Below the pieces are notes generated by a model. It was not told where the DNA came from and made no database searches. It saw only the letters and a program-made list of their open reading frames with translations. Below are positions 1,158 to 64,000 of a stretch of DNA of 64,000 nucleotides, in pieces. Made by a program: the position numbers and the translations under genes. Source of the DNA: Halichondria panicea (taxonomy: Eukaryota; Porifera; Demospongiae; Suberitida; Halichondriidae); contig NC_087379.1 in NCBI RefSeq assembly GCF_963675165.1, positions 4,667,442 through 4,731,441 of the forward strand. The letters are read 5' to 3'. Numbering within the stretch: the first letter of the stretch is position 1; each line of letters opens with the position of its first letter.

Positions 1158-2078
1158 GTAGATATTTGACTTATACCACGTGACTGAAGCACTATAAAGG
1201 ACCTCCCCCTAGCAACAATTCAATCCACGTTGCATACTGCAAAAAGAACAAGACTACGCCGGATTTTGTAGTTGTTGAAGAGCTAGTTAAGCAATAAGCC
1301 ATCTCTTACAGATGCTCAGGAGCTTCCTAGGTCCAAGTGTTGTGCATTCGACGTCTTTTGCTGCAGATGCAACTTCTTCTTGGTGAAAATGTATCTAAAG
1401 CACGCCCATGGACCCATGGAGGCTTAGCCAGAGGAGTCTGGAACCACTTGACCTTAGCTACATGTAATTAAGGTCACTAATTGGAAACTTCTCTTATAGA
1501 CTACTTCAAGCCAAGTTTTTAGTGTCTGTCAGTTTAAAACGTTATTTTTCAGGGGGAGTCAAATTTTATTTTTGCCAATTTTGCTCAGAAGCAGAGATAC
1601 AAGTCTCAAAGCCAGCTGTGTGGCGACCTCTAGAACAAGCCGCTCATGATATCGAGGCTAGTACAAGAGCAATGATTGTATCTCTGCCAACATTTTCCTA
1701 GCACATTGTATAGCATTGGGCAAACCACCACCATTGATTATAGCACTCCTGATTATAGTAAAGCATTGATTATAGTAAAGAGTAGCCTGCTATAAGCTTT
1801 AACTCCTAGCTGCAATATTGACTTTGCAATGTCTTACAAGTATACTTGTTTATGTTGGGTATGCGATGATCTTTACCATCTCATTACTGCTTTGCACTTT
1901 CCACTTTCACTTGTGGCCATCTTTACCAAGATTTCAATCCTCCAGTCCTGAGTTCTACACTGTTTTTGGCTCCTATTCCATCCATGCTCTACTTGTGGTC
2001 TAATAGGCACATAAAAGCCAGCATTGTATTTGCTGCATGTGGAATAGAAGACGTATTTAGGTTGACATTTACAATGTA

Positions 2079-2479
2079 CAGTAGACTCTCGTTAATCCGG
2101 CCACCTTTGGGACAGTGCAGCTTGGCCGGAATAGCAAGGTGGCTTCTGAAATACCCAGGGCTAAAAAACGACCTTACCTCGAATCAAATAACTAATTTTA
2201 CGTTTCTATTTCGAGGATACTGAATCATGGAATCATTCTGCTCTTTAATCTCTGCCAAACCACACCCAAAACGTCATATCCGGCCGTAATAAATGTAAAA
2301 TTTTACATTGAAAACCTAGTTTGGGGCAGCCAGTACTGCTAGTATACGGAATAGCCAGTGGCCGCATTTCAGGGCAAGTTTTGTGCAGTAAACATCTAGC
2401 TAGCAATCCATGCCAAACCAAATGGCCAGTATATCGAGGTGGCCGTACTTTAGAGAGCCGGGATAGTGAGCGTCTACTG
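2079..2479. mobile_element. TA-flanked pogo/Tc1-like MITE, copy 1
   Basis: The element begins CAGTAGACTCTCGTTAATCC and ends with the imperfect inverted copy (...GCGTCTACTG), with TA directly outside both ends (2077-2078 and 2480-2481). A related copy lies at 40743-41141 and shares internal segments such as GTGCAGCTTGGCCGGAATAG and GGCAGCCAGTACTG. It has no transposase, so it is non-autonomous. The TA duplication and the CAGTAGA termini point to the Tc1/mariner-pogo superfamily. Confidence 0.75.
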
Positions 2480-3225
2480 TACACACAAGTCCCAAGTCTA
2501 TATACATTAAATTTTTATTTCACCGTGTATGTACGTACATTGTTCCTATGCTATGTAATTAATTTGTAGATGTTCTCTGATGTCCAAGTAACTTTTGTTT
2601 TTGTACAATATAAAATCACTGTATGCCCTTCACTATGCATAGAACTCATTACTAGCCAGGTTGTGTAGGTAACTGTAATACCTAGATTTGATGCAACTCT
2701 CCAAATACCGTACGTATAGTACAAAATTGTCGCTGTTTTCGAGGGTTAGCAATCCTTTACGAAAATTAGGACCTTATAGCTAACGTAAAACGCAACGTCA
2801 TTGACCAAAAATGCATCAATGAGAGGCATTTTCAAATGCCTCGAAAATTTCGCACTACATTTGTATACAGTATGCGACACCCTCGAGCTTGGAAATGTTT
2901 GCCTAGCAACAGCTTGAGTTTACAAGTATTGTTTTTAGGTGGGAGGTCAAATGTTGTTACACCTGTCCTCGATTCTGTTTTTAAGCCTGAAATCTAGCTA
3001 AGCTATTAATTAAGTACATGTAGAGCCACCTCCAATGAAAGGTGACCCTTAAAATATACGACACCAGGACTTCTTCAGCGTAATTTTTGGCCTCCAAGAT
3101 AAGTGACCTCTGGCTTAATTTGTAATTATTAGCAGTATCGTCTTAAATCAAGGTATTATGGTAATTTAAAATCTGGCTACATGAACTTCATCTGTACACC
3201 ATTAAAATTGCCTTCCTTCTTACAG

Positions 3226-3292
3226 AATGAAGAGGTTCTCAGTGTGTACATCATCTCCCTTCTCACTGTTATTGGAACTCTCTTCTCTATTG
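3226..3292 (+). CDS. Candidate internal exon encoding a hydrophobic segment
   Basis: A pyrimidine-rich acceptor (cttccttcttacag) precedes an open segment that reads NEEVLSVYIISLLTVIGTLF and ends ATTG followed by gttagt. The reading is a plausible transmembrane helix with acidic residues before it. The exon ends in phase 1, which fits the phase of the candidate exon at 14175 (G|CC). It may belong to the gene whose last exon is 16313-17578, but that needs a ~10.9 kb intron or missing exons. No family recognised. Confidence 0.35.
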
Positions 3293-3599
3293 GTTAGTCG
3301 TTTACTGTACGTGTACTGTGGTCCTTATGTTCAGCATGTGTCCCTTGTGCGTTATGGTTATGACCTGGCTGTCATTTCGATAATGTAAGTGCCAGGCAGT
3401 AGAAGCCATTACATTGCCTATTACATGTATGTTAGGCCAATCAAATTTAATTGTTAGTTTCTCATCATCGCCCCACACCGTGCCTTCGATTTTTATTGCT
3501 GACTGTTCAAGATTTTGTCAAGTGATTAGTTGTATAAAGTTCATGCATAGCTTACCTTCAGTGTACATTGATAGCTAGAACATCACTGTCATGAAAATA

Positions 3600-3905
3600 A
3601 GATGCTCATAGAGCATTCACCCTGTGCGTTGAGCTTCATCGCACAGCGGAAAACAGATTATAAAGCTTTTACCGTAATGACCTTAACATTATGGGGAATG
3701 ATTGTGAATCGTGAATCTAGAAAGCAACGATTAGATCGATCAGAAAACAAGTGTTTTTTGGCGTCTTCAAACTACTGTCTCATTAGCCACTGTTTCATTA
3801 GCCATTAAAGCAGTCCATGAAAGTGTCTAGTTCGCTCAAACAGCTCATTTTTGTGTCCACACACACACCAATCACTCTACCCCTGCTGCGCACGCATGGG
3901 GTAAA
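3600..3905 (+). repeat. Dispersed repeat, copy 1
   Basis: This stretch resembles 30601-30860 in the same orientation: both share GATGCTCAT...GAGCA, GTGCGTTGAGCTTCAT, CACAGCGG, TTATGGGGAATGAT and ATGAAAGTGTCTAG in the same order. Small indels separate the copies. I see no terminal repeats that define its ends and no coding capacity. Confidence 0.65.
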
Positions 3906-6900
3906 GTTTAAATGCCCCTCCCCCTCCCCAATGTTTTGGATCCAACTTGATGAGAAACTAACAATTAAGGCTTTACCTACTGATGTCAAGGAGGTCACCT
4001 AAGTCCTTGTAATTTATGGTAAAGAAACAGCTGATATGTGGTGTTGTCTGAGTCTATGCTGTGATAACAGTGGCAATGTTTAGTAGAGCTTAAACCATCA
4101 GATTGGTAATTACTGTGTCTGATGTCCTGCTTGAGTAGCTGTGGACAGTGTGTTGGTAGTTGTGGTACATGTAATTTTGTAGACCACTTTTGTCCACTAG
4201 TATAGTGTGACTAGCAGTAACTGTGTGGGAATGTGCTCCACACTGAGAGATTATGGTCCTAGATAATTATTGCTCACTGTTTTGATCACTGTTTTGTGTG
4301 TAGTGTGCAGCTCCTCACTAGCCTCTCGATTAATTTTATTACTAGCTGTAATAGTATTTCGTTGTTGTCTGTGGACTGGTTGGTTGGGGCCCCAATGGCT
4401 GAACTACATGTACAGTATTGGCTCCTAAACCACGACCACTAATATCAACTGGGTGGATCTGAACAGATGCTCCTGTCCATTCTTTTAATTGGATTATAAT
4501 CTGCGGTGTATGTGTTCTATTGTTTTGTGTTCTGATAATCTCATTGCAAATCAACCACCCCTCTTGTTGTGCTGCTGTATCAAATCCTTCCACCCCTTTC
4601 TGTAAAAAGGTAAACTATTCTCTGTAACCCTCATCACATTGACATATTTATATAAAATGGATGATTGCTTGGTTTCCTGAGATTCATCTTGAGAAATAGT
4701 AATCCATTGTAGGTGGTTGATAGTACTCTGCCCACAAGAGTACAACCTTCTGGCTAGTTGTGAGTCCCACTGGAAATCCTTTCTACTAACACACTACCAG
4801 TTCCACTGCCATGCCTACATGTATGTAGCACATACATACATTGTACAACTCGTTGCTATAGCCCTAATAAAGTTAGTAAGTCCACAGTGTACTTGTGTGT
4901 GTATAGTGCCTGACTTGGTGTATTGTAGTGTGTGTACAGGAGTATTAGAGATGTGCATATACTGTACATCCAGTAAATGGTTTAGTACATGTGTATGTTC
5001 GCAAGTGCAAATTTGGTACAAATTGGTAGTGTGCTCGTGTGCCATGCGTTATGGTTCCATTTCTTTGTAGGGACAAACATAGATTGTGAGCCGTGTACTT
5101 AATGGTGTATCTTAGAGACAAACCCGTTAATCTGGTTAGGTTAGTGCATATGGTGCTAACTGCCCTCATTTTGTCCTTAAGTACTTGTTCGTTATGGAAA
5201 CTCACTACGGAGGGCCTACCGTTAAAAGGCCCCATTATACTGAGTAAGTAGATACATGGGTGTAGTGGAATGTGAAACAATAGGCAGCAGTAATGGATAT
5301 AACAATTACTGCAATTTTAATGGAGCTATTGGCTTACAGTGTGTCTCACTTTTAATGCATGCAACTGCAGCCTTGAGTACATGGGGCACTGATTAACTCA
5401 GTATGAGCATTGTTTGTTTACTATAGTATACGAATGTTATTATATGTTATCTGTGTGCTTTAGTTCTTGACTTGTGTGTTCTTAAACCACCCTCCTTTTC
5501 CTTAAGGTAGCTAACTACTGTATTTTTACCACTAATGATACTGGGCGGTAGCTTTTATGTGCCATCAGTTTCATATTCCAGCTGTAGGTAAACATTATAG
5601 AAGAGCACACACACACAACACACACAACATGAAACACTTCCCTAATGGTGCCCTTGAATGGCTTTACTCTTAATTAATCGGCCTTCTTTTCTCATGGTTT
5701 ATTGCCTCAGGGAGTTACAATTAAGCTCTGTGGTAGAGTAGTTTATACAGGCACAGCTGTGGGTTGTGTGTACTAAGTGTGTTTTGCCTAGCAACAACGT
5801 TTTGTTGTCCCATTACATTGTTTGAGCTAGTGGTTCTCATTGAAAATCACTTCTGACTCATTCCGTGTCCAGAATAGTATTTCTTGTATGCTCAGTTTCT
5901 AGTAATAAACACGCTATAAACACACACACTACAGCTTCCAAGAATGAAGTGTAGCATACATCCGTTATATGTATATACACAGAATATGATCCAGCTACAC
6001 CCCATATATACAAGTACCATCCTGTCTGTGGCCTGCACAAGAATTTACCCAGCCCAACCATTACCGTTCCATTATCTTTATGCATCCTAACACTTATACA
6101 TGTAGCTGCATGTACATATTGTACTTACATCGTAGAAAACCACTTTGTGCGCATGTTCACCTGTAGATTGTGCTCTTAATTTTTAAAACCCGAATTTGAA
6201 GGATCATGCATATACATTGTAGCCATAGCTGTGCGTAGTGTTCACGCACCTCCCATTTATGCTAACCCCCATAACTTAATTACAGCCCCCACAATCCATC
6301 CTTCCACTGTAACTTAGAGACTGCCAGCAGCATATGGTCACAATGCTTAATAATTCAATTACAGTGCCTTCAAGTGGAAGTAGCCTGCTCCACCAGTAGG
6401 GTATCTGTGCACGGCAACCTGCTGTAGTGGTCCGTTGGAATATTTGTGGGATATAAGATGCGATTTAGCAGTGCTTAGTCTATGTGTGGGCCCACCACTA
6501 TTGAGCGCATGTGCTTGGTGTGGGTTGGTTTGTTGTGTACTCGGCTCCTGTGGTAGCGTGTGTAGACTGTGCTACTTAATTGGTTTATAATTGGTTGCAT
6601 TCCGCATGACGCATGACGACTGACCTGGTTGTATGTGTTAAGTACTATCTAATTCTTGATACGTCAGTCACGGTCAATGGATCTCAGTTAATTTGCTTTT
6701 TTTTGTACGATCTTCTGTGCACTAATAATACATGTATGTACCAATTTCATTATTGCACTGATTTACTTTAAGCTGGAAGAGTGGCTTTAATTTAGGGGAA
6801 CCTACATGTACACTGTACATTAACGTGTGTGTGTACAATATACATGTATACATATCATGATATATGTATAATGATTGTTTTAATTGGGAGCAGTAACAAG

Positions 6901-55011: not shown

Positions 55012-55587
55012 AATTAATTGATTATAATAATTGATATTATAATAATTGAAACTGCATGCATGAGTGATCATACAGTCATCATTGTAGGACATGCACACCT
55101 GTGAGTTTACTGATTGAATGTGTATTATATATAATGCTGTTTGCGGTGCATTGAAGGTAGTGTTTTTTGATAGCTGTCTATATTATGCTGCATGGTCACA
55201 CAGGGCCAAAACAGTTCATTTACAGAAGTATACAACGTTGTACACTATCAACTTTCTTTGTAAACTATGAAGGAAACTATTGTAGATGAACTAAAATTCA
55301 ACAACATTGTAAACTATGATGTACACTCGCAAGTACAAACATAGTTTACAAGCTGTAAACTACCACTTCTGGCCCTGTGTCATAAAAAGAGATCGTCGGT
55401 ACATTTTCATCTGTGTTGGATGTCTACGCCCACTGAATCTCATGTGTCCTTGCTCTCTGATACCCAGCCAATTCCAGCACTGTAAAATTATGAAAAGAGA
55501 ACAATACGCAGAAGAGTTAAATAATAATATTGTTATGAAGATGCTTGAGATCATGCATGAAGTGTTCGGTTAAATATAATTGTAGCA

Positions 55588-55780
55588 TACCGTATAGCTG
55601 GTTATTTTCGAGGCACTATAATAATTAATATTTGAGGATTGACCTCAAACCTCGAAAATTGGCCAGTTAAAACACCTCTCTATATTGTAGGGGTGTGGTC
55701 ATTTGAACCTCTATCCTCGAAAATAACAATCTGCGAAAATTTGTCCCTCGAAAATAACCCGCTATACATTTTGTACGGTA
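55588..55780. mobile_element. 'CCGTATAGCGGG' MITE overlapping the 3' end of the CARD gene
   Basis: Left end TACCGTATAGCTGGTTATTT, right end AAAATAACCCGCTATAC...GTACGGTA, TA at both ends. The - strand CARD reading frame enters the element at 55780 and stops inside it at 55680-55682. Confidence 0.8.
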
Positions 55781-56499
55781 TATTGAACCATTGTCTCTGT
55801 TTGAAGGCTTGTACGTAAGGTACTAATTTTTTGACAACATTTTTATTATTACCGTATTTGTCTTCCAGAATTTTAGCCAGCTCCCAATGTCCAATATGCT
55901 CCTCATCTTCCTTCAAACTCTCAATGAGCTTGTAGATTCCTTCCTTACCTTTTGTTTCCAAGATGGCTACTAGTTTACCCACTTGAATTGTCCTTGACTC
56001 CTGATATAGCTTGTGTAGCATGCTTAGGTCACTGCAGCACAACACACGGTTTTTACAGAGAATAGGAACGAGTGTGTTCAAATCAATGAGCTTCTGGAAA
56101 TCCAAATGGAATGCGGATAGTGGCGACGTGTGCCAATACTCAAATACTGTTTTATCAGCTGATTCTGTGTTGAAATTTAAAAGGTAAGTAAACACATGCA
56201 TACAGTCATAATTCAGTATAAGTGTATACTCAAGAGTTGATGGTCTTGTATAATTGATCGAATATATGCAACTTACCAGCTTGACCTAGGTAGTACACAA
56301 CCAGCAAGCCCAGAAATAGTACAGCTCCGAATATAACAAGCAAAACGAAAGTGCAGGCAGCCCATGCACACAAATGATAGTCCAACTCTGTTCTTTGTGA
56401 CAACAGCAAAAGATAAACCAATATCGAGACAAGTACAAGCCAGTACGTGAATCCTATGACCAGTAGAACTCTGAGTGTGTAGTGGAGTTGTCCACTCAT
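55680..56499 (-). CDS. Two-TM protein with a CARD-like death-fold domain
   Basis: Exons: 56499-56277 and 56164-55680 (phase 1 junction), 235 residues. The ATG at 56499 (MSGQLHYTL) is the first in frame; the frame is open further upstream without another ATG. Exon 1 encodes two hydrophobic spans, VLLVIGFTYWLVLVSILVYL and an even longer one ending FLGLLVVYYLG, so the protein should be membrane-anchored. Exon 2 encodes a helical domain of about 90 residues with the CARD pattern: LDFQKLIDLNTLVPIL, LVAILETKGKEGIYKLIESL, HWELAKILED. It resembles the CARD of BCL10 and caspases (a GKLL-x-L-x-x-KG segment followed by L-x-x-L). CARDs build signalling complexes for apoptosis or NF-kB-type responses by CARD-CARD contact. 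A DEATH or DED domain is a less likely reading. The final ~32 residues come from a MITE. Confidence 0.65.
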
Positions 56500-56721
56500 G
56501 ACACCCGAGAGCTTCCAGGTATACAACTTCGGAGACAGGACTAGTCTAGAACTAGTTAGATAAATAAGGGATAGACTAGTTCACATGCAGCATTGGAGCT
56601 CCAGAAGAGGTGAGCTAAAGTTCTACTGATTGTAGTGTTTTATAGTGTAATCCTTCTGCGATGCGCATGCGGATCGAAGTCTGCTCAAACCATCACAGTA
56701 GCCTCGAATCCACGCCGATTA

Positions 56722-56881
56722 AAATGGAATTTAATAGCATATTAAATGGGGTTAACAACAAGGAGCAGGCCGCAATGACGTCACTCATCTCAACGCATGT
56801 GCACTAAAGTTGAAGCCTCGTGGCAGTCTCAGAACTATTAGCAGTCACTTTGTGAGCATATCAGATGTCCATCATTCATTC
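56722..56881 (+). repeat. Split direct repeat A1
   Basis: 160 bp starting AAATGGAATTTAATAGC and ending CCATCATTCATTC; same sequence and orientation at 62073-62232. The frame at 56810-57082 that starts inside it is not supported as a gene. Confidence 0.95.
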
Positions 56882-57165
56882 ATTCATTCATCTTCTGTCT
56901 ACCAATTCTCTCTACCGATTAGTGCCCGGTCATCGGCCATGGACCCCCCCCCCCCCTCAGTTGGCAGGTACAGAACACCTAAGCCTTTAGCCAAAAGTTA
57001 CTTCGACACCACCGCAGCTGGCACGTCGATAATAACCCCTCTCCATTCTAATACGAATGTGAAAAATCAGGGGCACAATTGACTGCCAAGGTGGTGTAGG
57101 ATCAATACATATAGTCGCTAACCATGCCTTATACGTACCTCATGCTCAGTGTAGCTATAGACAAT

Positions 57166-59120
57166 AAATTAATAAATTATATCATGTCGCTGCATGGAGA
57201 GTATGGCAAACTCAACAAGTAGCAACAGAGTATGGCAAAATCAACATAGCAACAGAGTAAGCCTATGTACGTGCATATAGATGCTTTATTCGTATACCTG
57301 TATAGACAATACCTATAATGATCATGTCGCTGCATGGACTCAAACAGATAAGAGTATGAGTATGGCAAACTCAACAAATAGCAACAGAGTATGGCAAACT
57401 CAACAATGGCAGGGTATAGCAAACCACTGCCAAGGTGGTGTAGGATCAAATGCTTTATACGTAGTTAAGTACCTAGCTATATACAGTACATGTCATGTCG
57501 CTCCACGGACAGCGGCCAACTCAACAAGGTACGGCAAACACAGCAAATGGCAGGGTGATGGCAGACCCAACAAATGCCAGGTACCGGCAGGGTGATGGCA
57601 TACCCACAAATGCCAGGGTGATGGCATACCCAACAAATGCCAGGGTAATGGCAGACCCAGGGTGATGGCATACCCAACAAATGGCAGGGTGATGGCAGAC
57701 CCAACAAATGCCAGGGTGATGGCATACCCAACAAATGGCATACTAACAAACTGCCGAGTGTGTATGTTAATAAATGCCGACTGTAGCAAACGCAACAACT
57801 GGCAGGGCGTGGCAAACCCAGCAAATGAAAGCACCGCAGGAGACACAAAGCTATTATACCAGGCAGACTAGATCAGTAATTTCTCATCAGCCCCCTCATC
57901 ACTTTTAGCCTTCCCCCCAAAAGTTTATTATTCATTATTTGTTAGGTGTGGCCTAAATTAATGAGCCACACCCACTGTATATTAGGCAGTGGTTTACAAT
58001 TAATGAGTTACACCCAGCCCACACGGCAAATTAGAAACCGATTACTGATGATGTAATGGTTGTGTACCGAAATATTGCATTGTCAGCATAATGAAGAGTG
58101 ATTAGTGACCCCTCATGGCCTCATCAATTTTTAAAAAACCATGTGGTGGTGGGAGGCTGCTGGTCTGCTTTGCCTGGTCTGGTGAACATTTTTGCTGCAT
58201 GCAAACTCAGAGTGGGTAATGATCGACCAAGATTGTTGTTAAAAAGTTCAAGTCTAAAATTAATCGTCTCTGTCAGAAAATTAATGACTGCCATCAGCAG
58301 AGCCTTGCAGCTCTCTTCTCACTCTTGCAGCTACCAATAGCTAGCGTTCTAGTTCAGAGCTAACTACTTCGCAGAGTAGCAACACTCGGTAAACAAGTTT
58401 GGATACATGCTCTGGCATTCCAAGTAAGCAAAACTAGGCATAACTCGAGAATGAAGCACTGATTATTTTGCAAATCCAAGAAAACATGACTAGAAGCCTA
58501 TAGAGAAACTCTTACTTGCACTTCATTGATCCTTGAACAGCTGTAGCAGTCTACACTGACACACACACACAAACATACTACCGTATACCTCGCTTGCGCA
58601 TGTGCACTGAGGCACAATAATGGCGAGTATGGCAAAACCCAACAAATGGCATACTAATAAACCAGAGTATAGCAAATGCAAACTCAACGAATGGCAACAC
58701 ACTCAACAAATATAGCCGAGTAGGGTGTGGCAAACCCTGGTATTGCAAGTTAACCTCAAGTAGCGGGGTATGGCATATATACCCCCCTGGGCCCATCCCC
58801 CAAAATAAATGTCGGGGCAGGTCAATCAAACACAATAATAATACACCTCAGCAAGCAAAGAGCCACAGTACACTTTATGAACTGCTCCTGCACGCACCAC
58901 AGGTATCTCGCAAAGTTCGCAGGTATGGAAAACTCTGAGTATGGCAAACGCAGCAAAACTCAGTAGGGTATAGCTATGGCAAACTCAACAAATGGTACCA
59001 ACAACAGGAGGGGTATGGCAAACTCAACAACATTTAGGAACAAGTGCAGGGCAAACTCAGAAAATGGCACCGACAAAAGGCGGGTTATGGTAACTGGCAG
59101 CAAACTCAATAAAATGGCAG
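57166..59120. repeat. Quasi-periodic 'ATGGCAAACTCAACAA' repeat field
   Basis: Short units of about 26-27 bp of the type GGGTGATGGCATACCCAACAA / GTATGGCAAACTCAACAA recur dozens of times, densest at 57195-57840 and again at 58620-59115. A higher-order anchor, ATCATGTCGCTGCATGGA, appears at about 57180, 57319 and (altered) 57493. Frames across it are repeat artefacts. It is interrupted by a copy of the GTF2H2 inverted-repeat element at 58187-58620. Confidence 0.8.
58187..58620. mobile_element. Third copy of the element that forms the GTF2H2 inverted repeat
   Basis: Matches the left arm at 33170-33590 in the same orientation: GCTGCATGCA, CAGCAGAGCCTTG, AGCTCTCTTCTCACTCTTGC, GCTACCAATAGCTAGCGTTC, AACATGACTAGAAGC, CTTGATCCTTGA-like, ACTACCGTATACCTCGCTTG. 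It is nested within the split-direct-repeat element. Confidence 0.85.
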
Positions 59121-60774
59121 GGTAGGCGGTATTGGCAAACCTACATGTCTTGATAGTAATGGCCTTAAACGATGGTCGCCACCCATCACAGCCATGGGAG
59201 ATATAAGTGCACCTCCCTACAGCAAGCAAGCAAAGAGCACTTTAAAATTATACACGGCTCACCGCAGGTACCGGATCAATGCCCCGCCTGCTAAACACCC
59301 TGACAATCAGGAGTTCTCAACTACGGATACTCAGCTTCCTACCCAACAAAGAAGAAAGTAGTCTCGATCTAACACCATCATTATAGTCAAACGCTCCATG
59401 GTGGAATCGATTGCCATCATGAAGGGGGGGGGGCTGAGGGCTGAGCAAGCCACTATAATATACATTGCTAGTGGCACTATTATAGGGTATAAACACATTG
59501 GAACTAGGCATACATGCACAGCCGTTATTCTCAGCCATGCAAGCCATGCCCCTTATGCTTACTAATGTACACGGCTATATACAATTGCCAAGCTCAGCAA
59601 AAAGTAAAATTCCATCATGGACCACGTATGACCACAACCTTCGGGAGGACGCAGCAGCAATATAGGACAGCGTGATTGGTAAAAAAAAAAAAAAAAAAAT
59701 GGAGGCTGGAATATTATATGTCGGGCTGGTGTCACATTTGCAACTCCTCAGACCCATTCCCAAGCATGCAGCCGCTCCAAAATAGCCCAGTATAAGGGGC
59801 ACTAGCGTCGCTCGGTGTTGTCGACTCCACCCCCCAAAGCAGCTACGGCTGGTGGGACTGGAAACCTACAGCTCCGATTTCTGTATGTATATATAGGTGC
59901 AAACCAAAATAAATTAAACCATGCTGCCCACAAGTGCATGTATAACCCCAAAGAGAGCGATATACTCTCTTGCACAAAAACAATGAAACAGCTAGCTTGT
60001 GCACGTTTAGTATACTTACTCCACTTCCCAGGTATTTGTTTACATTTTCTAGTTCATCCCCATGTTATCACTACATTCACCACAATCATTTTTAATTTAC
60101 CCGTATTTCCTAACTTTAATGGTAACCTATATCTATCTGCAACATGCCTGGCAGCAAGGGGCCAGCCTACAAAAGACATTACCATGCATGCATGATCTGC
60201 AGGCCAAAAACTAAAGGGTACCATTTACACTCAACAGCTGGAAGCGCGGTAATGCATGCACACCATTAAAAGCCGAAACCTGGGAGGCAGAACCGAGCCA
60301 CCACCCAGATAATACCCAATGTAGTTAGTATGTCGTAAACAGATTGGAATATAGTCAAAGGCTCCTTACAAATTACATGAAATTTCCGCCCAAAGACTAC
60401 ACCTGCAGCAGCATGCATGGTGATAAAACCTCAGGGACAGGTCCCATATATTAACATTGCAAAAAAGGCAAATGGCATGGCGGCTTATTATTGATCTATT
60501 ATAACGCCAGCGTCAATATGTTGCAGTATAATTATCGTATCAGTATTATATGATTGCTATATATAGGTGCGCATGCAATGGAATAGTAAAGTGCTCATCT
60601 CCCGCAGACGCGTTATACAGTGGATATAATGAAACAACCGCGGAACAGGCAACGGCCCCCCCCCCCCTCTTGGAGCTTAGCAAATTCTCAGGGATGGGCG
60701 GATGGCCAATTAAATTGGAATTCACTATAATATTGTAGAGCACTAAACTAAATAAAGGCGGGGAGGACAAGGGG
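59121..60774. other. Internal region of the retroelement, nothing further recognised
   Basis: No intact frame of note. It includes an 18-nt A run near 59680. Upstream reverse-transcriptase blocks were looked for but are not recognisable by eye. Confidence 0.5.
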
Positions 60775-61290
60775 TTGCTGTCCCTCATTGGATATACCTC
60801 AGCATGTTTGTGACTGATTGATGCATCTACCACATTCCATCACTTAGACGGCTTTCGCCGCCTGAATGTCGCTGCACGTTCTGACATTCAATGGTGGTCA
60901 ACATTTGCTTCACAGTGGAATACATGCCACTTCCTGCTCGTTCGCTGCATCAAGGACAACCCTATAGTTTCACTGTTATACATGGGGCTGCGGTGCCTAT
61001 GAAGCAGGACAATGGTTCCAACTCCAATGGCCTAACCCAAGGGAGGATTGCCATATAGTTATATATCGATAAAAGAAATGATCATAGCAGCAGGCAAACG
61101 CTGGGTTAGACATTCGGTTCGTTTCCAATCAGATAACTCAGCCGTGGTATAGCCTCAGGTGCTAGCAGACCTGAGGAGAGATGTCTGGTCTCTATTACAG
61201 CCAAATTTAACTTTACAGTGTTGGCATCCCATATTAGAGGAATACATAACTAATTAGCCGACGCTCTCTCTCGCAACAATCACTTCTGCA
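60775..61290 (+). pseudogene. Relic of a DIRS-like reverse transcriptase/RNase H region
   Basis: In changing frames the DNA reads LLSLIGY...LIDAS, then RLNVAARSDIQWWSTF and QWN, then WGCGAYEAGQWFQLQWP after a frame change, then FQSDNSAVV followed by a stop, and finally SHIRGIHN(stop)LADALSRNN. This order is typical of the connection and RNase H part of DIRS/Ngaro-type polymerases (SLIG, RSD-WW, WGCG, SDN, ADALSR). At least three stops and at least one frameshift make it non-functional. Confidence 0.75.
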
Positions 61291-61848
61291 TATGCTATGT
61301 TATATTAGCTTACATGGCGTTTTAGTCAGTTCAACGACGGTAGACTACTCAGAAAATCTCGCTTTGTCCACGCATATCCACAATTGGCCTGAATCCTCTT
61401 TACTATACTGGCCACTCCTTTAGAATCAGAGCAATAGTGCTAACAGCAAGCGTTATTTGCATGGTCAAGCTCTGCATGCACATGCACTCCTTGGCTACGT
61501 TTTTCCCAGCATCATAATTATAGAAAGAGCCGAGAAGTAATCGTTCTTCTCTAACTTTGGTTGTCGTGTCTTGTGTCTTGTGTCTGAATTATGGAGCTAA
61601 TTCCGTCATGCCCTTAGTACATTATCTATATAATGATGATTATACCGGTATACATGAAATCAAGATAGGCTTCCTATACACTAACTAAAGAAAGATCTGT
61701 AATATCATGGAGATAATATAACATACGTCAGACTGAGTAAATAAAAGGTACATAAATGACAATAAAGGGTTGTTTGGGCTCAGCTTGGGAGTATTTGTGA
61801 GTCGAAGGGACTCATTCCTCACCCAAACAAAAGATAGACGTAAAGATA

Positions 61849-62076
61849 TGTGGTAAAATACCATTTTAAAGAAAACAAGATCTGGCTAAAATATAACCCC
61901 CGAAAGGCTGAGGGGTTAATCCCCTAGGCGGGGATGCCCATTCAGATGAACAATGCTCTTGAACCCCAACCAATATCATTATGCTATTGGTTTGCATATA
62001 ATATTATTAGCAAGTAATTCTGCATAACGATATACTCGTAGAATTATACCCGATACTGCGACACAAGTTGTTAAAT
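61849..62076 (+). repeat. Split direct repeat B1
   Basis: 228 bp from TGTGGTAAAATACCATTTTA to CACAAGTTGTTAAAT; contains the inverted motif CCCCGAAAGGCTGAGGGG and GGGGTTAATCCCC. The same block is found at 62438-62665. Confidence 0.95.
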
Positions 62077-62232
62077 GGAATTTAATAGCATATTAAATGG
62101 GGTTAACAACAAGGAGCAGGCCGCAATGACGTCACTCATCTCAACGCATGTGCACTAAAGTTGAAGCCTCGTGGCAGTCTCAGAACTATTAGCAGTCACT
62201 TTGTGAGCATATCAGATGTCCATCATTCATTC
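62073..62232 (+). repeat. Split direct repeat A2
   Basis: Copy of 56722-56881. Its first four bases (AAAT) are also the last four of B1. Confidence 0.95.
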
Positions 62233-62437
62233 CCCTCCTCATTCCCACCCCTTGTACTTATAATTATGCTTAGTTCTTTTAGTTCATTCCCCTCCTCATT
62301 CCCACCCCTTGTACTTATAATTATGCTTAGTTCTTTTAGTTCTTTTTGTATCTCCAGTGTCGGTCAGTTTGCACCCTGTCTGGCACTGTGACAAGAGCAT
62401 ATCATGTGCATGGGCACCAGATTGAGTAATAGGTTAC
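62233..62437 (+). repeat. Spacer between A2 and B2 with a 57-bp tandem duplication
   Basis: TCCCCTCCTCATTCCCACCC...TTAGTTCTTTTAGTTCAT occurs twice, at 62231 and 62288. The rest is unique in the window. Confidence 0.85.
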
Positions 62438-62665
62438 TGTGGTAAAATACCATTTTAAAGAAAACAAGATCTGGCTAAAATATAACCCCCGAAAGGCTGA
62501 GGGGTTAATCCCCTAGGCGGGGATGCCCATTCAGATGAACAATGCTCTTGAACCCCAACCAATATCATTATGCTATTGGTTTGCATATAATATTATTAGC
62601 AAGTAATTCTGCATAACGATATACTCGTAGAATTATACCCGATACTGCGACACAAGTTGTTAAAT
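62438..62665 (+). repeat. Split direct repeat B2
   Basis: Second copy of B, ending in AAAT at 62662-62665, which marks the right end of the element. Confidence 0.95.
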
Positions 62666-62805
62666 ACGTGTAATTATAATAATACCGTAAGTGTTCCAAT
62701 TATAGAACCAGCCTCGGTTAGGACACCCTCTTTTATAACGCCCATAATTATACTACCATAATTATTATTTTGACTGGTTAGAAGACTTCAGAATCAGATC
62801 ACACA

Positions 62806-64000
62806 ATGTCTTTTTCAGTAATGAGACTGGCTTTTTGCTTTCTCTTCAGTACCCTGATTTTGTCTGACTATTCAGTCTATTGTAAAGTAAACCAGCAAGA
62901 CACACAGTCAAAAAAGAAGATTCAGACTGATGTAGTTATTGTAGGAGCTGGATATGCTGGTCTCACAGTTGCAAGAAAGCTCAGCCAAATGAATTTCACC
63001 GTACATGTGCTGGAGGCTAGGAATGCAACTGGTGGCAGAACAAAGAATTTCTGCTTGAAGAATATGAAACCAGATATTGAGAGTGACTACGTTGTCGAAC
63101 TTGGTGGTCAATGGCTTGCCAATAAAACTGTGCAACCTCATTCATGGGAGTTGATAGTTGAAGAATTGGGGTTTAAGTTGTTTGATGCTAGTTACACACC
63201 GTCTGACTCCCGCTCTAGTGTTGTGTATGTATCTAATGGCCAGTATAATTTCACAACATTGATTGATGCGTTTCATAAACTACCACAGGATGTGCAAGCT
63301 GAGCTGGCTAAAGCTTGGGCTCTCTTGGACAGTATGGCTGCAAAAATAGACTTGGTTTCTCCATATTTGTCTCCTGAAGCTAGAAAATGGGATAGTCAAA
63401 CGTTTACCTCTTGGATAAACAACACCGTTCAGTTGGAGGAGTCTCGAAATGCCCTCCAAATTCTCAGCACGTCAATAATCGCTCAAAGCGCTGATGTCGT
63501 ATCATTTCTTCATATGCTTTTCTACATACGTGCTTCCAAAGGAATGACCAACCTTGTTGCGAGCGAACAACAATACCGTGTTGTTGGAGGAACACAAGCT
63601 CCAACTTTCAAAATGGCACAGGAGTTGGGCAGTGATCATGTTCTCCTGTCTACTCCAGTCCGTAGGATAACTCAAAATAGTAATGATGGTTGTGCGATAG
63701 GTTCTGTGGTAGTGGAAGCTTCTGAAGGTGAAGTAGTTGTTGAAGCGAGGTATGCTGTAGTAACTGGAGCACCTTCAGTATCTGGTAAGGGAATTCGATT
63801 TATTCCTCCACTCCCGTTTGAAAAGAGTCAACTTTTCCAACAAATGCCGATGGGAAATTCTGTCAAGGGAACACTGGTTTATCCAACTCCTTTCTGGCGC
63901 AAAAATGGTTTTACTGGGACACTTTTTGCATCAACACCATTTTTTGGAGATCCCAAAAATATTCTTCTCAGCAACTGCTTTGATAACACACCATATGCTG
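62806..64000 (+). CDS. Secreted flavin-containing amine oxidase, 3' end outside the window
   Basis: An uninterrupted frame of 398 codons runs from the ATG at 62806 to the window end. A second ATG at 62821 (MRLAFCFLFSTLIL) could also serve; both give a signal peptide. The FAD-binding Rossmann motif is VVIVGAGYAGLTVARKL (Gly 47, 49, 52), with Glu70 after a beta strand (VHVLEAR) positioned to bind ribose. GGRT (76-79) and ELGGQWL follow. Further on come QYRVVGGTQ, a VVTGAP segment, IRFIPPLPFEKSQ, MPMGNSVKG and TPFWRKNGF, all typical of the MAO/flavin monoamine oxidase family. These enzymes oxidise amines to aldehydes with release of H2O2 and ammonia. N-glycosylation sites (NAT, NKT, NFT, NNT) agree with secretion. 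No intron is seen in 1.2 kb, unlike every complete neighbour. Which amine it uses cannot be told. Confidence 0.85.
   Translation, partial: MSFSVMRLAFCFLFSTLILSDYSVYCKVNQQDTQSKKKIQTDVVIVGAGYAGLTVARKLSQMNFTVHVLEARNATGGRTKNFCLKNMKPDIESDYVVELGGQWLANKTVQPHSWELIVEELGFKLFDASYTPSDSRSSVVYVSNGQYNFTTLIDAFHKLPQDVQAELAKAWALLDSMAAKIDLVSPYLSPEARKWDSQTFTSWINNTVQLEESRNALQILSTSIIAQSADVVSFLHMLFYIRASKGMTNLVASEQQYRVVGGTQAPTFKMAQELGSDHVLLSTPVRRITQNSNDGCAIGSVVVEASEGEVVVEARYAVVTGAPSVSGKGIRFIPPLPFEKSQLFQQMPMGNSVKGTLVYPTPFWRKNGFTGTLFASTPFFGDPKNILLSNCFDNTPYA

What the first reader, a model, noticed from the sequence alone, without database searches (positions are those of the whole stretch)
56722..62665. Split-direct-repeat retrotransposon (A1-pol relic-B1-A2-B2) with identical terminal blocks but a dead polymerase
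Two unrelated repeats are arranged exactly as in Ngaro/PAT-type tyrosine-recombinase retrotransposons, with a shared AAAT at both outer ends and at the B1/A2 junction. The terminal blocks look identical, which implies recent movement, yet the RNase H relic has stops and a frameshift and no recombinase is visible. A non-autonomous family mobilised in trans would explain this. The internal repeat field and the 205-bp spacer between A2 and B2 are unusual.
Basis: partly seen in the sequence, partly recalled or inferred. Interest (0 to 1): 0.75.

Follow-up and report, generated by a model that had tools for sequence, protein, structure and literature searches.

The report
Polymerase-dead Ngaro retrotransposon that still jumps
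This is a genetic parasite that has lost its own copying and pasting enzymes but has recently spread to several places in an animal-like genome, apparently by borrowing the enzymes of relatives, and its copies show where those enzymes cut and join.

Summary
Window 56724-62663 is an A1-interior-B1-A2-spacer-B2 element with A1=A2 and B1=B2. Seven copies found in this genome have all five blocks; another lacks only the left end. All 10 copies with the RNase H relic share its four in-frame stops, yet differ there by only 0-1.75%, W and L004 by 0/1148, and the flanks compared share only short or common repeats. So the family moved after it died, in trans. One diverged relative, L018, shares A and B and keeps a pol frame and a frame-broken tyrosine recombinase (YR), without room for a methyltransferase: Ngaro-type, not PAT. 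Empty sites for three copies join exactly at ATGG...GTTAA, nothing duplicated or lost; AAAT is not a target. The B1|A2 junction carries a TTAA-rich motif found in other Ngaro families here (23 places, control 0), whose outer arms differ between families but stay complementary, like a recombinase site. Solo A-spacer-B and A-interior-B forms occur. No intact partner with these ends was found; cross-family mobilisation or an unseen master remain open. New member of a known kind.

The parts
56724..56881 (+). A1, left terminal repeat (left border ATGG; 56722-56723 are ambiguous A bases)
   Evidence: identical to A2; border from empty sites of L001, L008, L009
56882..61848 (+). interior: decayed, roughly colinear remains of a Ngaro-type element
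   Evidence: piecewise match to L018; 96-100% identity to the other complete copies
57198..57740 (+). internal repeat field (17-71 bp units)
   Evidence: homologous field in L018 about 1193-1571
59579..60464 (+). relic of the gag/nucleocapsid region up to the start of pol
   Evidence: 60% DNA identity to L018 2234-3084; protein match weak (E 0.001)
60812..61283 (+). relic of the C-terminal pol (RNase H) region, with shared stops and frame changes
   Evidence: 69% DNA identity to L018 3752-4205; tblastn E 6e-22 to the L018 pol frame; four in-frame stops (60811, 61000, 61033, 61251) shared by 10 of 10 copies
61312..61454 (+). last remnant of the YR gene (His-x-x-Arg box); the rest is missing
   Evidence: 76% DNA identity to L018 4928-5063 (61312-61433, E 4e-23); ends of the L021 and L027 YR frames, weak E 0.05-0.07
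61849..62074 (+). B1
   Evidence: identical to B2
62067..62110 (+). putative recombination site across B1|A2: arm GTTGTTAA 62067-62074, core 62075-62102, arm TTAACAAC 62103-62110
   Evidence: motif in several families, 23 places vs 0 control; covarying arms
62075..62232 (+). A2
   Evidence: identical to A1
62233..62437 (+). spacer, with most of a 57-bp tandem duplication (62226-62282 / 62283-62339)
   Evidence: L003 has one unit, giving a 148-bp spacer
62438..62663 (+). B2, right terminal repeat (right border GTTAA; 62664-62665 are ambiguous)
   Evidence: identical to B1; border from sister empty sites

Best explanation
A non-autonomous family of Ngaro-type tyrosine-recombinase retrotransposons. 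It descends from an element like L018 by loss of the RT core and nearly all of the YR gene and decay of gag and RNase H, while A, B and the B1|A2 junction stayed intact. Inferred cycle: a transcript that includes B1A2 is copied by RT and RNase H from another Ngaro element; B1A2 supplies the sequence missing from the transcript ends, so a circle closes with the right end joined to the left end as GTTAA|ATGG; a YR acting in trans at the TTAA-rich site around that joint inserts the circle without target duplication. Shown: the architecture, the shared defects, recent independent insertions, exact borders and absence of target duplication for three copies, and B1|A2 as an exact joint of the two outer ends. 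Inferred: RNA intermediate, circle, YR as the enzyme, identity of the donor.
For: Repeats identical. Seven complete copies plus one lacking only the left end. Four in-frame stops of the RNase H relic are kept in 10 of 10 copies, and nine stop triplets in any frame too, one as TAA instead of TAG in L011, while this piece differs by 0-1.75% over 45 pairs. Flanks (450 bp each side) of the seven complete copies and L002, and the right flanks of L007 and L011, share only short or common repeats. Exact empty sites without duplication: L008 (2 paralogs), L009 (2), L001 (5 of 14 matching places fetched). A1/A2 share the diagnostic base within each complete copy: T/T in 3 of 3, C/C in 4 of 4. Coding relative L018 with the same ends: RVT_1 E 2.3e-12; its YR frame reaches SAM-like models only below cut-off, the YR frame of L021 reaches one above cut-off. 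Other elements here have long open RT and YR frames; L024 and L025 are 98.9% alike over 4.7 kb, so enzyme sources exist.
Against: No intact element with these A and B ends was found among the places the searches returned: 33 of 33 A places and 32 of 33 B places were fetched and compared; the searches are lower bounds and the assembly has withheld stretches. No transcript or circle was observed. Of 12 joined flanks, 8 (this window's copy included) gave no empty site and one (L002) only an inexact one; that search scored 40 of 2609 candidates, so it does not show absence. B1 and B2 differ by one or two changes in 3 of 7 complete copies, A1 and A2 by one in 1 of 7 (end columns trimmed).
Confidence: 0.9

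Rival explanations
1. On the donor (within the best explanation): cross-family mobilisation. The enzymes come from other Ngaro families of this genome (L024/L025, L027, L021/L022 types) that recognise the common TTAA-rich core, since the cognate lineage is dead.
For: No intact element with these ends found; L018 is the only close coding relative, next RT matches 54-61% and YR 59-62%; the core motif is shared; other families have open genes.
Against: The outer arms differ between families, which argues for family-specific recognition; the core spacer length differs too (7 versus 5-6 bases).
Confidence: 0.4
2. On the donor: a cognate autonomous master with the same A and B exists, or existed until recently, but is absent from this assembly (other haplotype, gap, withheld stretch, lost).
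For: Usual situation for non-autonomous families (general knowledge); a single assembly with N stretches was searched; arms are family-specific.
Against: None seen among the A and B matches.
Confidence: 0.5
3. Each copy was autonomous when it inserted and died later.
For: Identical terminal repeats alone would allow it.
Against: The copies share the same stops and the same interior without RT core and YR.
Confidence: 0.02
4. The copies spread by segmental duplication or assembly duplication, not by transposition.
For: L014-L017 are indeed one mini-element with duplicated flanks.
Against: The seven complete copies have flanks that share only short or common repeats, and exact empty sites exist for three of them.
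Confidence: 0.02
5. A PAT-type (DIRS group) element with a methyltransferase.
For: Same split direct repeats.
Against: In L018 the pol and YR frames are 85 bp apart; in L027 they overlap and about 157 bp remain before B1, so no methyltransferase fits. Judged by space; no search for the domain was run on the gaps.
Confidence: 0.03

Closest known systems
Ngaro retrotransposons (PMC4157794, PMC8547959, PMC9210276: passages read)
   Same: A1-[ORFs]-B1A2B2, gag-like, RT/RNase H and YR in relatives, no methyltransferase; solo AB repeats as reported in Cafeteria (PMC8547959)
   Different: this family has no working genes; a 205-bp spacer separates A2 and B2; the borders are shown by empty sites
VIPER and its short derivative SIRE of trypanosomes (PMC6681497, section 6 read)
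   Same: SIRE corresponds to the A2-B2 region; compare the A-spacer-B minis here
   Different: the main form here keeps the whole architecture; sequences were not compared
TOC1 of Chlamydomonas (recalled; no paper on it was read)
   Same: as recalled: a transposon with split repeats, internal tandem repeats and little coding capacity
   Different: alga, filed with PAT/Toc elements; sequence not compared
DIRS1 integration model (PMC3266345, passages read)
   Same: circle junction, YR integration, no target duplication
   Different: DIRS1 has inverted terminal repeats and recombines at a 3-bp sequence identical in the target; by eye no trinucleotide is shared with GTTAA|ATGG at the joints of the three exact empty sites here

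Membership tests
Ngaro | split direct repeats A1-[]-B1A2B2 | tested here: met
Ngaro | RT/RNase H and YR genes in the element | tested here: not met
   the window copy has only an RNase H relic and a YR end; genes are present in the relative L018, YR broken. Hence filed as a non-autonomous derivative, not as an autonomous Ngaro
Ngaro | no methyltransferase domain | tested here: met
   no room between RT, YR and B1 in L018 and L027; judged on relatives and by space only
Ngaro | RT/YR phylogenetic position | not tested
   no reference sequences were fetched and no tree was built
PAT/DIRS | methyltransferase domain | tested here: not met
   as above
DIRS1-like | inverted terminal repeats with internal complementary region | tested here: not met
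   terminal repeats are direct; the only inverted pair of 25 nt or more in 55500-64000 lies outside the element
YR-mediated integration | insertion without target duplication | tested here: met
   three copies with exact empty sites; not shown for the other nine of 12 flank pairs
Non-autonomous family mobilised in trans | several recent independent insertions sharing the same disabling changes | tested here: met
Non-autonomous family mobilised in trans | identified enzyme donor | tested here: inconclusive
   open candidates have other ends; the only coding element with matching ends, L018, is broken

The most novel reading that the evidence does not exclude
The B1|A2 junction is itself a working recombinase site: a TTAA-rich core with outer arms, one at the end of B and one 28 bases inside A, that co-evolve as a complementary pair in each Ngaro family. 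Since the integrated element holds a full site inside and half sites at its ends, YR can split it or its circle into A-spacer-B and A-interior-B, which would account for the solo AB (SIRE-like) forms by site-specific rather than homologous recombination; and the shared core lets one family's YR move another family's dead copies.
Probability: 0.3. Interest if true: 0.65.

Novelty: new member of a known kind. Interest (0 to 1): 0.45.

Why it matters
I know of no precise definition of the recombinase site of Ngaro-type retrotransposons (recall, plus the passages read). This genome offers a recently mobile dead family, exact empty sites, solo halves and several families whose site arms covary. Together they let one predict the site by comparison and test which YR moves which family. 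The origin and mobility of short A-B derivatives such as SIRE is left open in PMC6681497 (section 6).

Tried and rejected
AAAT as target or duplication: rejected, since the exact empty sites (L001, L008, L009) have none at the joint. Segmental duplication: rejected for the complete copies, true for the mini L014-L017. PAT: rejected (no room for a methyltransferase). An intact master among the weaker A matches: L068, L070 and L071 look like relics, L069 gave no match above 45 bases beyond the core motif. Whether minis arose by A1 x A2 homologous recombination or by YR could not be decided: both leave the same product, and the solo copies of a second family (F1: 12 solo A sites fetched, 8 of them A-spacer-B in whole or part, 4 complete) do not separate the two. 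Conservation of the F1 core (34 of 34 in 13 of 16 loci) is partly an artefact, since those loci were chosen by an exact pattern; a case not chosen so is W versus L018, where 51 of the first 52 bases of A1 agree against 72-78% over the repeats. Against it, A2 of L018 has lost eight bases of the inner arm, and the mini L014-L017 has lost that arm. A 4-bp repeat around L010 and a 17-bp repeat around L018 were seen by eye, not in other copies. A target-base preference (C after GTTAA) was considered by eye and is too weak. The host was not identified; a zf-AD domain (above cut-off) in an insert and a CARD-like match (below it) beside the element suggest an animal. Structure prediction and trees were not run.
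Full report
OBSERVATION. The five blocks lie as described: A1 56722-56881, B1 61849-62076, A2 62073-62232, spacer 62233-62437, B2 62438-62665; A1=A2 (160/160), B1=B2 (228/228). The interior holds a repeat field and a stop-ridden RNase H relic. The longest stop-to-stop frame inside the element is 131 aa.

FAMILY. Searching the window's own genome (131 Mb, 39 contigs) gave 33 places for A and 33 for B; these counts are lower bounds. 33 of 33 A places and 32 of 33 B places were fetched and compared (not fetched: C15:1788010). Complete A1-interior-B1-A2-spacer-B2: W, L001, L003, L004, L006, L008, L009. L011/L012 lacks only A1 and the first 47 bases of the interior. L003, L008 and L011/L012 carry insertions. 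A-interior-B without A2-spacer-B2: L002 and the rearranged L007. L005 keeps the left part only. A-spacer-B minis: L010, L013, and L014-L017, which have the same flanks and so are one event. L018 is a diverged complete relative; L019, L020, L068, L070, L071 are fragmentary; L069 has only the core motif.

DEAD BEFORE IT MOVED. Ten copies keep the 1.1-kb end piece with the relic. Over 45 pairs they differ by 0-1.75%; W and L004 by 0/1148, and L006, L008 and L009 by 0/1129. The four stops that lie in the aligned frames (60811, 61000, 61033, 61251) are present in 10 of 10 copies; so are nine stop triplets taken from all three frames, one of them as TAA instead of TAG in L011. Flanks of 450 bp of the seven complete copies and L002, and the right flanks of L007 and L011, share only short or common repeats (longest 63 bp between copies); the flank of L005 and the left sides of L007 and L011 were not compared. 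So insertions happened after gene loss, by enzymes supplied in trans. A1 and A2 carry the same diagnostic base in 7 of 7 complete copies and are identical in 6 of 7; B1 and B2 are identical in 4 of 7 and differ by one or two changes in L003, L006 and L009 (end columns trimmed).

BORDERS. Flanks of 12 copies were joined and searched. Three had exact empty sites: L008 (C8:1779941, 259 of 260 bases identical; and C8:2353723), L009 (two places) and L001 (14 places of a repeat family, 5 fetched, all exact at the joint; their similarity reaches only 30-50 bases to the left). The element is ATGG...GTTAA; nothing is duplicated or lost. L002 had two related places, not exact. Eight, including the window's copy, had none; only 40 of 2609 candidates were scored, so absence is not shown. 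The internal B1|A2 joint reads GTTAA|ATGG, exactly the right end joined to the left end, as a circle intermediate would give. AAAT at both outer ends is seen in the window copy only, among copies printed with both ends.

ORIGIN. L018 (C2:4895700-4902300) has A1...B1 A2 B2 at 72-79% identity to the window's repeats, a frame with a cysteine-rich stretch that looks like a zinc knuckle by eye (Pfam finds nothing above cut-off), a 376-aa pol frame (RVT_1, E 2.3e-12) and a YR region split over two frames. YR is named from similarity to L018-related frames such as that of L021, which matches Phage_int_SAM_4 above cut-off and Phage_integrase just below it. The window interior is roughly colinear with L018: gag region at 60%, RNase H at 69%; about 723 bp of L018, most of YR, correspond to 29 bp, followed by a remnant of the YR end; about 668 bp of the RT core correspond to 348 bp without a match. 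The repeat field is also in L018. The genome has many more RT and YR matches to L018: 110 and 38 at E up to 0.001, the weakest RT ones probably other retroelements. Ten of these loci were fetched. L024 and L027 have long open RT and YR frames together with B1-A2-B2 (L027 also A1); L021, L025, L026 and L028 have such frames without the whole repeat set in the stretch fetched; L022, L029 and L030 have B1-A2-B2 with interrupted frames; L023 has a long YR frame but no repeats or full RT frame. L024 and L025 are 98.9% alike over 4.7 kb. In L027 RT and YR frames overlap and about 157 bp separate YR from B1, so no methyltransferase fits.

RECOMBINATION SITE. The B1|A2 joints of different families share TTAA-N-TG-NNN-TTTAA-N(5-7)-TTA-N-A-Y-NNN-GTTAA. 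I drew this pattern from four joints (W, L022, L024, L027), so their hits are by construction; it occurs 23 times in the genome, 8 of them this family, and the reversed control 0 times. Without the leading TTAA it occurs 93 times, control 0. Immediately outside the two TTAA, bases differ between families but are complementary: W GTTG/CAAC, L058 CTAG/CTAG, L059 GGCG/CGCC, L024 CTTA/TAAG, L029 CTG/CAG, L030 ATG/CAT, L022 CA/TG, F1 GA/TC, L027 G/C; none for L060 (perhaps a chance AT-rich match). Over the ten joints this makes 27 contiguous complementary positions (capped at four each) against a mean of 7.2 when arms are dealt among joints, 0 of 200,000 deals reaching 27. L058, L059 and L060 are pattern hits whose surroundings were not examined; over the seven joints shown to lie in Ngaro-like elements the sum is 19 against a mean of 6.1, reached by 47 of 200,000; over the five of these that fit the pattern exactly it is 13 against 4.2, reached by 1661 of 200,000. 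L029 and L030 were aligned by hand (L030 has TTAG for TTAA inside A). Families are treated as independent although some are related (L027 and L059 have similar cores). The simplest reading is a pair of YR-binding arms. That is inference: no protein was tested.

HOW IT WORKS. Best reading: trans-mobilised retrotransposition with circle formation templated by B1A2 and YR integration without target duplication (model for this group partly recalled; passages on DIRS1 in PMC3266345 and on Ngaro in PMC8547959 read). Transcript, circle and donor are inferred. Open: the donor. The only coding element with matching ends is broken and 21-28% diverged in A and B.

COMPARISON. Ngaro elements and solo AB repeats are reported in Cafeteria (PMC8547959, passages read). 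SIRE as the A2-B2 region of VIPER, with origin and mobility undecided, is in PMC6681497 (section 6 read). I saw no description of covarying arms in the listings or in the passages read; those cover open-licence papers only, and the original Goodwin and Poulter papers cited there were not looked up.

VERDICT. A real, recently mobile, non-autonomous Ngaro-type family: a new member of a known kind. Its added value is the exact borders, the missing partner and the covarying site.

Noticed in passing
L014-L017 (C1:15.68, 16.74, 16.94, 17.04 Mb): The same A-spacer-B mini with about 450 bp of 99-100% identical flanks on both sides at four places of one chromosome; its A lacks the inner TTAACAAC arm. 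The right flank of L010 is the same 400-bp repeat (95%), inverted.
   Followed up: partly
L008:5710-6159 and L003 about 1930-4120: Insertions inside two copies; the one in L008 has a zf-AD domain (Pfam E 1.4e-7), the 2.2-kb one in L003 has short frames without a Pfam match above cut-off.
   Followed up: partly
window 55683-56285, minus strand: A 201-aa frame with a CARD-like match just below the Pfam cut-off (E 9.8e-5), beside the element.
   Followed up: partly
L007 (C1:17963300-17972300): Rearranged copy with two left ends in opposite orientation.
   Followed up: no
L042-L057 (family F1, C3/C5/C7/C8/C11/C13/C17): A second Ngaro family with several solo A-spacer-B copies, about 73-99% alike, its core almost unchanged (loci chosen by pattern).
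   Followed up: partly
L018 about 601-640 and 6048-6070: A 17-bp sequence is repeated on both sides of L018, three to four bases off the left border; not seen at other copies.
   Followed up: no
L025: Downstream of its YR frame L025 holds a large irregular array of direct repeats up to 474 bp long.
   Followed up: no
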